Made by a program: the position numbers and the translations under genes
The notes under the pieces: model-generated
The model's database searches: none
What the model was told of the DNA's origin: nothing
What the model saw: the letters and a program-made list of their open reading frames with translations, nothing else
Source: a virus
Virus record (IMG/VR): IMGVR_UViG_3300043410_001072
Location: 1-31,752 of that record
Strand: one strand, 5' to 3'
Length of the DNA stretch: 31,752 bases
Shown here: positions 3,904 through 11,057 of the stretch, one piece after another
Layout of the letters: each line of letters opens with the position of its first letter
Numbering within the stretch: position 1 is the first letter of the stretch

Positions 3904-3977
3904 GCGGGATTGGTGAAGTGGTATCTCGAGACCTTGCCAAGGTTTAGTGACGAGTTCGATTCTCGTATCCCGCTCCA
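3904..3977 (+). tRNA. tRNA-Gly (GCC)
   Basis: Acceptor GCGGGAT/ATCCCGC, anticodon loop TTGCCAA giving GCC, T-arm ACGAG-TTCGATT-CTCGT, discriminator T and encoded CCA. It is a second Gly isoacceptor, away from the main cluster, between omega and the release factor. A TAAATA element inside the palindrome GCTAAATATTTTAGC (3889-3903) lies just upstream. Confidence 0.95.
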
Positions 3978-3995
3978 GATTTAAAGGTAACACAA

Positions 3996-4712
3996 ATGAA
4001 AAGAGTAATAGAAATCCGTGCTGCCGAGGGCGGCGAAGACAGCAAACTATTTGCAAAAGATTTGGCCCAAGCATACATTCGCTTGGCTTCTCGCCACGGC
4101 TGAACTAGCCGCCTTATAAATGAGTACCTTGGCGAGATACATTTAGAAGTTGAGGGTACTGATTTATCAGGCTTAGAAAATGAACCCGGAGGACATCGCA
4201 TACAACGGGTTCCGCCCACCGAACGGAAAGGGCGTGTCCATACTAGCACCGTGACCGTTGCAATCGTAGATGCCGAGGGTCCAGCTAAACAGCAGACTAT
4301 ACCCAACTCTGATTTAAGAATTGAATGGTACAGTGGGACTGGGGCTGGTGGACAACATCGCAACAAGCATCAGAACTCCTGCAGGATTACCCACATCCCA
4401 ACAGGAATTGTAGCCACGGCGCAATGCCGTAGTCGGCAAAATAGTCTTGCCGAAGCCCTACAAACAATACAAACACAAGTTGACAACATAGCACAGACAG
4501 CATATAATAAAACAATAGCAGCCGATAGAAAACAACAAGTTGGTACAGGTATGAGAGGCGACAAGGTTAGGACTTATCGCTTTCAAGATGATCGTGTGCA
4601 AGATCATGTCACAGGCCGGAGTGCCAAATGTTCGGCTATTTTACGAGGAAACTTTGATTTATTATGGCAAAAGAAATCCCTGAACACAAAGACAAACTTG
4701 GAAAGCTACTAA
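3996..4712 (+). CDS. RF1-type peptide chain release factor with in-frame UGA
   Basis: The same frame runs from ATG 3996 (site AAAGGT) to TAA 4712, 238 residues if the UGA at 4101-4103 (codon 36) is read. Before it: IEIRAAEGGEDS (domain 2 start). After it: GGHRIQRV, the stop-reading motif P73-P74-T75 (PxT, the UAA/UAG reader of RF1, not the SPF of RF2), SGTGAGGQ with the catalytic GGQ at 118-120, and RTYRFQDDRVQDH. Domain 1, which contacts L11 and RF3 in full-length RFs, is absent. The UGA sits in RHG-stop-TSRL, where bacterial RF1 has G-W or G-F, so reading as Trp restores the family sequence. No in-frame ATG follows the UGA; GTG 4251 would be too late for the PxT motif. Confidence 0.8.
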
Positions 4713-4918
4713 GCGTAGGCGATGCAGTCTGCTATCCTAGCCATAATAGTTTGGAATTAGGAACCGTTAAGAAACTCAATCCCAAGATGGTTAAAGTATG
4801 GGAAGCAGGCCGTCACGGCAAGTGGTATACAGGTAGTAACAAATACCCACAAGATCTAGTTAAGGTAGAGGGCGCCGAGGTAACAATGTATCTCTTGAAA
4901 ATGAATTCTTCTGCCTAG
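4664..4918 (+). CDS. Small SH3/KOW-like phage protein
   Basis: An 84-residue protein whose first 49 bases overlap the end of the release factor in another frame. It contains LLSVGDAVCYPSHNSLELGT then VKKLNPKMVKVW, a short beta-rich pattern like a KOW or SH3 barrel. The same VGD-x-V start appears in two other small genes here (23664 and 25495). Its 3' end converges with the leftward gene ending at 4860, so the two overlap by 59 bases. The role is unknown. Confidence 0.65.
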   Translation: MAKEIPEHKDKLGKLLSVGDAVCYPSHNSLELGTVKKLNPKMVKVWEAGRHGKWYTGSNKYPQDLVKVEGAEVTMYLLKMNSSA

Positions 4919-7741: not shown

Positions 7742-8278
7742 ATGGAAGGATTTACAATGGAACTTAGTGGAATGGATATCGTGCGTAAGGCACAGGTGTT
7801 CGCTACGGCTGCTCATGCGGCTGTTGGACAGAAGCGCAAGTACACCGGTGAGCCCTACATCGTTCACCCTGCAGAAGTTGCCAGTATCGTTGCAAGTGTA
7901 GAAGGTGCTACTTTTGATATGATTGCGGCTGCATGGCTTCACGATGTAATCGAAGACACTGGTTGCACTTTTACTGACGTCCACATGGCGTTTGGTATCG
8001 ACATCGCAACCCTTGTTGATTGGCTTACTGACGTTAGTCGTCCGGAAGATGGCAACAGAGCTACCCGGAAGGCTATTGACAGAGCGCACACTGCTCAAGC
8101 ACCTGCTGAAGCGCAAACAATCAAGTTGGCAGACTTAATCAGCAACAGCCGAAGCATCATGCAACACGATCCTGCTTTCGCTAAGACTTACTTAGAGGAA
8201 AAGAGATTGTTGTTAGAAGTAATGACAAAGGGCGATGCCGGATTAATGGCAGAAGCCCGCAAGTATATTGGAGATTGA
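7742..8278 (+). CDS. RelA/SpoT-type HD hydrolase (putative (p)ppGpp hydrolase)
   Basis: A 178-residue single-domain protein. It carries the hydrolase signatures of the RelA/SpoT HD domain: RKYTGEPYIVHP with H42, the H67-D68-x2-E71-D72 motif (HDxxED) in WLHDVIEDT, and D131 in KLADLISN. The HDxxED pair separates active hydrolases from synthetase-only members, and no synthetase domain is attached, so it is like the small alarmone hydrolases (MESH1-type). It would lower (p)ppGpp during infection. The best start is 7742 behind AAGGAG. Other nucleotides are possible substrates. Confidence 0.83.
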   Translation: MEGFTMELSGMDIVRKAQVFATAAHAAVGQKRKYTGEPYIVHPAEVASIVASVEGATFDMIAAAWLHDVIEDTGCTFTDVHMAFGIDIATLVDWLTDVSRPEDGNRATRKAIDRAHTAQAPAEAQTIKLADLISNSRSIMQHDPAFAKTYLEEKRLLLEVMTKGDAGLMAEARKYIGD

Positions 8279-8279
8279 A

Positions 8280-8498
8280 ATGAAATGGTTTTGGACCGAT
8301 GCGAAAGGCGTTAAGGCAGATGTCGAACGGCATCGTGCCAAAGAAGCCGAACTAGATGCTAGGATAGCAGAGCTCGAAGCTATTGCCGATCCTGGCCCTA
8401 TGGATATTGCTTGCCTAAGGACTTATCGTAGGTTCCGTGCGAGCCTGCTACAAAGCAAGGCAGAAGTAGTTACAAAGATTGGAAAGAAAAATGTTTAA
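8280..8498 (+). CDS. Hypothetical coiled-coil-like protein
   Basis: A 72-residue protein starting at ATG 8280, two bases after the HD gene stop. It is a helical, charged protein (VERHRAKEAELDARIAELEAIAD) that may form a short coiled coil, then a second helix. Its 3' end overlaps the RNA ligase start by 8 bases, so translation is coupled. It could be a small phage regulator, and no family is recognised. Confidence 0.68.
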   Translation: MKWFWTDAKGVKADVERHRAKEAELDARIAELEAIADPGPMDIACLRTYRRFRASLLQSKAEVVTKIGKKNV

Positions 8499-9390
8499 GG
8501 ATGAATTGAAGAAGTATGTTGCCGAATCTGGACTCGTGAATATGCGTCCTGCTGGCGACAATATCTTTGTCCTAAAGTACAAGAAGAAGGTGTTCTACGA
8601 TAACCTATGGAACGACTACATTGCAGAATGTCGTGGCTCCATTGTAGACGCCGACTTCAACTTAGTTGCATATCCTTTTACTAAGATCTATAACTATGGT
8701 ATCGAAAAGGAAGCACCAGTTCTGCCCGACTTTACACCAGTCACTGCATTCCGTAAGGTTAACGGCTTTATGGTATCTGCTACTTGGCATAATGGTGATG
8801 TCTTGGTGTCAACAACTGGCTCTACAGATAGCGACTACGTTGCTATGGCCAAGGAAATGATGCTGACTCATATGTGCTGGGCTGACTGGCAAATGGCATT
8901 CGCTAATGCAGATATGCAGGGCCTGACTGTAATGTTCGAATGTGTACATCCAAACGATCCACACATCGTTCCAGAAAAGGCTGGCATGTATGTGCTAGGC
9001 TATCGTGAAAACTCGTGGCGTTCAAAGGTAGGACACAATCCTAACGTTCTGAACATCATGAAGGAAGGGTTCAACTGTTTCGTGCCAGAACACTGGCGTG
9101 TTACAATGAGTGAACTTAAGACTATGGCCAAGGAATGTAAGCACGAAGGATTTGTATTCTATACTGAAAGCGGTGTGAGTGCTAAGATCAAGTCGCCATA
9201 CTACTTGACTTCAAAGTGGGTTGCTCGCAATCCACGTACAGACAAGTTGGTAGATTTGAACAAGGACATAAAGCACAATCTTGATGAAGAATACTACCCA
9301 CTAGTTGACGCTATCCGTGCTAACATTGTAGAGTACACAGCAATGGACGAGCAAGCTCGCCTAGCTTGGGTAAGGGAGCAACTAGCATGA
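8491..9390 (+). CDS. T4 Rnl1-type RNA ligase
   Basis: A 299-residue protein with the ordered motifs of ATP-dependent RNA ligase 1: the ECRGSIVD segment (46-53), motif I K89-V-N-G92 with the AMP-accepting lysine, FECVHP (motif IIIa region), EGFVFY (motif IV) and KIKSPYY (motif V). T4 Rnl1 is 374 residues, so the C-terminal tRNA-specific domain is shorter here. Such enzymes reseal tRNAs cut by host anticodon nucleases. With ten phage tRNAs, the kinase at 6409 and phosphoesterase at 6907, an RNA-repair role is likely. The next gene overlaps by ATGA. Confidence 0.9.
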   Translation: MFKDELKKYVAESGLVNMRPAGDNIFVLKYKKKVFYDNLWNDYIAECRGSIVDADFNLVAYPFTKIYNYGIEKEAPVLPDFTPVTAFRKVNGFMVSATWHNGDVLVSTTGSTDSDYVAMAKEMMLTHMCWADWQMAFANADMQGLTVMFECVHPNDPHIVPEKAGMYVLGYRENSWRSKVGHNPNVLNIMKEGFNCFVPEHWRVTMSELKTMAKECKHEGFVFYTESGVSAKIKSPYYLTSKWVARNPRTDKLVDLNKDIKHNLDEEYYPLVDAIRANIVEYTAMDEQARLAWVREQLA

Positions 9391-10530: not shown

Positions 10531-11057
10531 ATCCTTGCCTCATTACTTTCGTTAATTAATCCGTGATTACTCAAGTTGTTTAATCTGCATATGGTCTTAA
10601 CAGGCATGTGTTCTCGATTATTGTTACTATCAAAGAACTGAACTAACGGGTTGGTTATTAACGGAATATGATATCTTGAATGTTTTTCAAAGTAAGCGCC
10701 AGGATCAATATGCATGTTTATCTTTCCCTTTGGTTCGAGATGTACGATCATTATTCTGCCTAATTTTATTCCCTGCACTGTCGACATAATCCATTCAGCG
10801 GCTTTGTAATGTTCAGGAAACCTTTCTATAACTCCTTTATTATCAACGCAGTCAACAATAGATGAAAATTCGTCAATAGTCGTTGGCATCTTTGTAGATT
10901 TCGAAACATCGTGCGACCTAAGATGTATAGACGTGCTTGTTTTAAATACGCCTTGCTTTCTTCCATCTTGCACACGCTCCCAATCAATTTTCGATAATTC
11001 TGTTAAGCAATTATCAAAAATCTTATCAGGGACTTCTTTTATTACCTGAACTAACAT
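10482..11057 (-). CDS. Aspartyl/asparaginyl beta-hydroxylase-like oxygenase
   Basis: A 191-residue protein. RIMIVHLEPKGKINMHID (about 101-118) with H116-x-D118, RYHIPL (128-133) and NLSNHGL with distal H165, then R175 in EARIHLIVDV, match the Asp/Asn/Arg hydroxylase family of 2OG-Fe(II) enzymes. The ATG at 11057 is used. A TTG at 11087 is possible but would lie deeper in the upstream gene, which already overlaps by 32 bases. It is the last gene of the leftward transcript, and its 3' end runs 49 bases into the convergent TauD gene. Confidence 0.82.
   Translation of the reverse strand: MLVQVIKEVPDKIFDNCLTELSKIDWERVQDGRKQGVFKTSTSIHLRSHDVSKSTKMPTTIDEFSSIVDCVDNKGVIERFPEHYKAAEWIMSTVQGIKLGRIMIVHLEPKGKINMHIDPGAYFEKHSRYHIPLITNPLVQFFDSNNNREHMPVKTICRLNNLSNHGLINESNEARIHLIVDVETPGGNSTF

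What the first reader, a model, noticed from the sequence alone, without database searches (positions are those of the whole stretch)
3996..4712. RF1-type release factor interrupted by UGA at the conserved Trp position
The frame before and after UGA (4101-4103) is one continuous RF1 domain 2-4 protein. It has the PxT stop-reading motif (UAA/UAG), GGQ, and no domain 1. The UGA replaces the conserved aromatic in the G-W/F position of RF1, so only Trp-like readthrough restores the protein. RF1 does not read UGA, so RF2 and readthrough would set its level: a possible feedback switch. A small GGCT...AGCC hairpin has the UGA in its loop. Other genes use TGA as normal stop.
Basis: partly seen in the sequence, partly recalled or inferred. 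Interest (0 to 1): 0.82.

Follow-up and report, generated by a model that had tools for sequence, protein, structure and literature searches.

The report
Phage release factor gated by UGA
Giant phages and some bacterial plasmids carry a shortened release factor 1 gene that is almost always interrupted by a stop codon, usually UGA followed by a conserved RNA hairpin, so the ribosome must read through or shift frame to make the protein; this looks like a recoding switch on a termination factor that published surveys do not describe.

Summary
The window's RF1-like gene (3996-4712) has one in-frame UGA at 4101-4103. It is not an error or a private mutation: 122 distinct relatives from IMG/VR, isolate genomes and megaplasmids (93 clusters at 90% aa) all have exactly one in-frame stop in this stretch, always TGA, 117 at the same codon. 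The next base is never T. A long stem-loop starting 7 nt after the UGA is conserved by compensatory changes (13 of 18 pairs; 0/500 shuffles), with depressed synonymous change there. In the wider superfamily, 163 of 170 scorable clusters are recoded: 137 with same-frame UGA, 3 with UAG alone, 23 with a prfB-type +1 site CTT-TGA or CTT-TAG; TAA never; 7 have no stop. Carriers use TGA as an ordinary stop and those tested lack SelB, so neither an alternative code nor selenocysteine explains it. Best explanation: programmed UGA readthrough (probably Trp) gates synthesis of a domain-1-less RF1, making it respond to RF2/termination capacity. The gate is strongly supported; the RF2-sensing logic is inferred.

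The parts
3904..3977 (+). tRNA-Gly(GCC) just upstream; the gene lies in a tRNA array
   Evidence: ARAGORN
3983..3987 (+). probable ribosome-binding site (AAAGG), 8 nt before the ATG
   Evidence: sequence; inference
3996..4100 (+). first part of the RF1-like frame (35 codons): start of domain 2
   Evidence: translation; dN/dS 0.10 in relatives
4101..4103 (+). in-frame UGA at the RF1 Trp position, followed by A
   Evidence: one in-frame TGA in 122/122 members, +4 base never T
4111..4130 (+). 5' arm of the conserved 3' stem-loop, beginning 7 nt after the UGA
   Evidence: covariation; window fold -24.1 kcal/mol, z -4.0
4153..4172 (+). 3' arm of the conserved 3' stem-loop
4104..4709 (+). second part of the RF1-like frame: rest of domain 2 with PxT (VPPTE) and domain 3 with GGQ
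   Evidence: AlphaFold model pLDDT 89, TM 0.86 to ribosome-bound RF1
4710..4712 (+). terminal stop TAA
   Evidence: sequence; 107 of 121 members with a visible end finish in TAA

Best explanation
This is a viral/mobile-element RF1 (domains 2-4 only) whose synthesis is gated by programmed stop-codon recoding. Ribosomes reach UGA at codon 36. Most are expected to terminate through RF2; a fraction insert an amino acid (most likely Trp by near-cognate tRNA-Trp(CCA)), helped by the UGA-A/G/C context and a long stem-loop that starts 7 nt downstream, and then make the full factor. Since UGA is decoded only by RF2, output should rise when RF2, or termination at UGA in general, is limiting. The RF1-type product would then take over UAA/UAG termination (UAA is the commonest stop in these phages) and free RF2 for UGA, which closes the gate again. 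Shown by comparison: the conserved UGA, the unbroken reading frame, the conserved stem-loop, and its exchange with prfB-type frameshift sites. Inferred: readthrough level, amino acid, codon specificity of the product, and the RF2-sensing loop (the loop itself about 0.5; the confidence given is for the recoding gate).
For: One in-frame stop, always TGA, in 122/122 distinct members, 93 clusters, including isolates Gemmobacter caeni, Jiella and Thalassospira and plasmids of Rhizobium, Bosea and Variovorax. +4 base never T in 93 clusters (p about 4e-6 against first-codon-base use). Protein constraint continues after the UGA: dN/dS 0.10 before, 0.26 in the next 26 codons, 0.05-0.13 beyond; pS falls to 0.24 (against 0.34-0.49 elsewhere) over the stem (codon-level). 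Stem: 85% of cells paired, 13 of 18 pairs with both-side changes, 60 compensatory cells against 18.6 shuffled (0/500), slid registers 31-52% paired. Fold z-score minimum at +6..+72 after the UGA: -3.77 in the main clade, -1.57 in others. Superfamily: 163/170 clusters recoded; all 24 frameshift members carry CTT-TGA or CTT-TAG, most with an upstream GGAGG-like SD. TGA is a normal stop genome-wide. RF1 fold, TM 0.86.
Against: No expression or protein data exist for any member. RF1 is not expected to read UGA, so most members cannot regulate themselves directly as prfB does; the loop must run through RF2. Seven clusters have no stop, so the gate can be lost or was never gained there. The long covarying stem is clear in the main phage clade; other clades have other, weaker hairpins.
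Confidence: 0.82

Rival explanations
1. The stop codon is a fixed dose limiter: leaky UGA keeps a potentially harmful RF at a few percent, without sensing anything.
For: RF overexpression lowers fitness in B. subtilis (PMC12421855). Readthrough and frameshifting are interchangeable in the family, as would be expected if any attenuator does.
Against: A weak start site would limit dose more simply. TAA is never used, and the stops are only the two that are each read by a single release factor, which points to sensing. The prfB-type site in 23 clusters is a known sensor.
Confidence: 0.3
2. Direct self-regulation: the product reads its own recoding stop, as RF2 does in prfB.
For: Ten clusters use TAG (5 frameshift, 3 readthrough, 2 with TGA plus TAG), which an RF1 would read.
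Against: The other recoded clusters use TGA only, and the RF1 recognition motifs (PxT, HTS, the Gln before PxT) are kept in the window's clade.
Confidence: 0.08
3. Selenocysteine insertion at UGA.
For: UGA with a downstream stem-loop superficially resembles bacterial Sec genes.
Against: No SelB above cut-off in five bacterial carriers or four jumbo phages; ARAGORN found no tRNA-Sec in the three tiled phage genomes; the position is aromatic in RF1; other clades move the UGA or frameshift.
Confidence: 0.01
4. The phages read UGA as Trp throughout (code 4).
For: UGA lies at a Trp position in the main clade.
Against: TGA ends 24-34% of genes, with ATGA start/stop overlaps and normal coding density under code 11 (huge phages); only tRNA-Trp(CCA), no UCA anticodon.
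Confidence: 0.01
5. Pseudogene, sequencing error, or two separate products (a short peptide plus an internally started C-terminal piece).
For: Annotation pipelines split or miss the gene (Variovorax, Bosea).
Against: Same codon in independent assemblies and isolates; purifying selection through the stop; 64 of 122 have no in-frame start between the UGA and GGHR and only 3 have ATG.
Confidence: 0.02

Closest known systems
Autoregulatory +1 frameshift in prfB (RF2)
   Same: A release factor gene whose early in-frame stop must be bypassed. 23 clusters of this superfamily have the same kind of site (CTT-TGA/TAG, usually with a GGAGG-like SD), all +1.
   Different: Here the product is RF1-type, viral or plasmid-borne, without domain 1; most members use same-frame readthrough with a 3' stem-loop; some sites carry UAG, which the 2025 survey found in none of 8,164 genomes (PMC12421855). 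That survey and Atkins 2016 (PMC5009743) report no such programmed recoding in RF1 genes.
Mimivirus/Megavirus class-I RF (R726/mg280), UGA readthrough plus frameshift
   Same: A giant virus release factor made by reading through an in-frame UGA, Trp proposed (PMC3521657).
   Different: Eukaryotic/archaeal-type RF, unrelated to bacterial RFs, eukaryotic host; there two events in series, here one (occasionally two stops), with a conserved hairpin and over 160 phage/bacterial clusters.
Bacterial RF1 (prfA)
   Same: PCRF and RF-1 domains, PxT, GGQ, RF1 fold.
   Different: No domain 1, GGQHRNKHQN instead of GGQHVNTTDS, RF1 models score half the cut-off; separate clade; in-frame stop.
PrfH (RtcB2-PrfH)
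   Same: RF lacking domain 1.
   Different: Only 32-61 bits to the PrfH model against 145-204 for RF1; keeps PxT.

Membership tests
RF1 (prfA) release factors | PxT stop-recognition motif and GGQ motif | tested here: met
   VPPTE and GGQ; P73, E76 and GGQ invariant in 24 aligned members, P74 and T75 at 90% or more
RF1 (prfA) release factors | RF1 domain 2-3 fold | tested here: met
   AlphaFold pLDDT 89, TM 0.86 to ribosome-bound RF1
RF1 (prfA) release factors | Domain 1 and model cut-off | tested here: not met
   starts at domain 2; 204 bits against cut-offs of 400/423
RF1 (prfA) release factors | releases peptide at UAA/UAG, not UGA | not testable with these tools
   needs an in vitro release assay
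prfB-type autoregulatory frameshift | +1 frameshift at CUU-UGA with upstream SD | tested here: not met
   window and all 122 same-frame members keep one frame; 23 clusters of the superfamily do have it
programmed stop-codon readthrough | conserved in-frame stop with continuous coding on both sides | tested here: met
programmed stop-codon readthrough | leaky context and 3' RNA structure | tested here: met
   +4 never T; covarying stem
programmed stop-codon readthrough | measured readthrough product | not testable with these tools
   no expression data
selenoprotein | SelB in the organism | tested here: not met
alternative genetic code (UGA=Trp) | TGA absent as a stop, UCA tRNA | tested here: not met
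PrfH | scores above the PrfH model cut-off | tested here: not met
   43 bits against 167

The most novel reading that the evidence does not exclude
A cross-factor feedback circuit: mobile elements carry an RF1 that is switched on by shortage of the other factor, RF2, through UGA readthrough (or a prfB-type slip site), so that a phage tunes the whole termination capacity of its host during infection. Evolution has swapped readthrough, frameshift, and single or double stops while keeping the gate.
Probability: 0.5. Interest if true: 0.92.

Novelty: new variant of a known kind. Interest (0 to 1): 0.87.

Why it matters
A 2016 review states that same-frame readthrough control of bacterial release factor genes was considered before sequencing but never found, and a 2025 survey finds no recoding control of RF1 genes (PMC5009743, PMC12421855). 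Here is a large family, in the biggest known phages (up to 735 kb) and in cultured bacteria, where it is nearly universal. It offers many natural readthrough cassettes with a defined stem-loop in bacteria, a ready comparison of readthrough with frameshift on one gene, and a test of whether phages sense and rebalance host RF1/RF2. It also shows why the gene is missed: pipelines split it or annotate the opposite strand.

Tried and rejected
DNA-level matches in the phage collection: none. A single consensus RNA fold over all 67 ungapped clusters: none; the stem shows when the main clade is folded or pairs are counted. tRNA-Trp with A24 (Hirsh-suppressor-like, from memory) as the cause: seen in all four tRNA-Trp of the three tiled phages, but only 29 of 49 distinct tRNA-Trp genes have U11-A24, so not general. 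4-bp anticodon stem in tRNA-Trp: not seen, all four drawn have 5 bp. A bacterial core gene: rejected, 1 of 385 alphaproteobacterial genomes (the known carrier) matches GGQHRNKHQN, and bacterial copies nest among viral ones.

Full report
OBSERVATION. The window is a 31,752-base IMG/VR virus record. The frame 3996-4712 is open except for TGA at 4101-4103. It sits directly behind tRNA-Gly in a tRNA array. Read through, it is an RF1-type release factor with PCRF and RF-1 domains, RF1 models clearly ahead of RF2 and PrfH, and no domain 1. An AlphaFold model (pLDDT 89) superposes on ribosome-bound RF1 with TM 0.86. The UGA aligns with the Trp of solved RF1s.

CONSERVATION. The IMG/VR search used peptide patterns that do not include the stop. 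It gave 80 loci; every locus that covers the codon has TGA (79 of 79 counting the window). Alphaproteobacterial relatives at about 50% identity (Jiella, Gemmobacter caeni, Thalassospira, a Sphingomonas MAG) have it too, as do plasmids of R. leguminosarum and Bosea; a Variovorax megaplasmid has TGA 11 codons later. Among 122 distinct members with the family motifs, all have exactly one stop in the stretch and all are TGA, 117 at the same codon. They form 93 clusters at 90% aa.

EXCEPTIONS. The two members of that first set without a same-frame stop have +1 frameshifts at or near the same place: a Hahella MAG with CTT-TAG-C and L238 with GGAGGGG-T-CTT-TGA. Huge phages in GenBank show more: LR756502 (642 kb) and LR756504 (636 kb) have one TGA at other sites, LR756501 (735 kb) and LR745206 (635 kb) have two, LR745208 (485 kb) has a prfB-like CTT-TGA site, and LR756511 has none. 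Three further scans brought the superfamily to 202 members, 171 clusters: 129 single TGA, 6 double TGA, 2 TGA+TAG, 3 TAG, 18 +1 at CTT-TGA, 5 +1 at CTT-TAG, 7 no stop, 1 truncated. TAA never occurs there, although it is the commonest terminal stop. All 24 frameshift members carry CTT-TGA or CTT-TAG. On a tree, the three states readthrough, frameshift and none need at least 7 changes; in the smaller tree bacterial members lie among viral ones.

RNA SIGNALS. The base after the UGA is A, G or C but never T. Synonymous sites are constrained from codon -1 to about +23 around the UGA, and pS drops to 0.24 there against 0.34-0.49 elsewhere, while dN/dS stays well below 1, so this stretch is both translated and under an RNA constraint. 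The segment +6 to +72 is the only one in the gene with strongly excessive folding stability (z -3.77 in the main clade, -1.57 in 26 other clusters). The stem (window 4111-4130 with 4153-4172) is supported by compensatory changes: 13 of 18 pairs, 60 cells against 18.6 expected, 0 of 500 shuffles, and all slid registers far worse (main subclade). The shuffle control ignores relatedness, so the slid registers are the safer comparison. The window's own fold is -24.1 kcal/mol, z -4.0.

ALTERNATIVES. Alternative code: excluded in the window, three jumbo phages and four huge-phage segments. Selenocysteine: no SelB in the carriers tested. Restart inside the gene: more than half of the members have no start codon available. 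Pseudogene or error: excluded by conservation and selection. The bacterial carriers each have four RF-1 domain genes, those read including ordinary RF1 and RF2, and 18 phage contigs each hold only this one RF-1 domain gene.

MECHANISM. Shown by comparison: a conserved stop, an unbroken frame, a favourable context and a 3' stem-loop, which together are the hallmarks of programmed readthrough. Inferred: Trp insertion, readthrough level, and regulation. The use of single-factor stops only (UGA mostly, UAG sometimes, never UAA) and the exchange with the prfB-type slip site suggest sensing of release factor supply rather than a mere brake. For UGA members the sensed factor is RF2; the RF1-type product would relieve RF2 by taking UAA, which is an indirect negative loop (confidence about 0.5).

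LITERATURE. Atkins et al. 2016 state that same-frame early stops in RF2 genes are not found and that the RF1 counterpart is unknown, with the giant virus exception (PMC5009743; Mimivirus PMC3521657). The 2025 prfB survey finds no programmed recoding in prfA and no TAG in the prfB motif (PMC12421855). Huge-phage papers mention release factors without this feature in the passages searched (PMC7162821, PMC7824862, PMC13037316). Subscription papers and preprints could not be searched.

Noticed in passing
L091:7515-7589 and L091:876-1270 (jumbo phage G002, about 187 kb and 181 kb): The phage that carries this RF1 also has a tRNA with CTA anticodon (called tRNA-Pyl by ARAGORN, possibly an amber suppressor) and a tmRNA.
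   Followed up: no
L122:9918-10226 and 10599-10916: R. leguminosarum pRlX5 has two further, decayed partial copies of the RF1-like gene downstream of the full one.
   Followed up: partly
L123:7995-8627; L124:7959-8129 and 8145-8663: Annotation hides the gene: in Bosea the opposite strand is called a hypothetical protein, in Variovorax the gene is split into two coding sequences around the UGA.
   Followed up: yes
L309, L336, L374, L442, L467, L469, L470: Seven clusters of domain-1-less viral RF1 have no stop; useful natural controls for loss or absence of the gate.
   Followed up: partly
L312 (Prevotella phage Lak-C1): The Lak phage release factor is an RF2-type protein with upstream domain and no internal stop in the stretch read, a contrast to this family.
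   Followed up: partly
window 8479-9387: T4 Rnl1-like RNA ligase in the same record; with the tRNA array it suggests tRNA repair.
   Followed up: no
window 4664-4918: An 84-codon frame starts inside the 3' end of the RF1-like gene, overlapping it by 49 bases.
   Followed up: no
phage tRNA-Trp genes (G002, G012, G013): These tRNA-Trp(CCA) have A24 in the D stem, as in the E. coli Hirsh UGA suppressor (from memory); 29 of 49 distinct tRNA-Trp genes in the fetched loci have U11-A24.
   Followed up: partly
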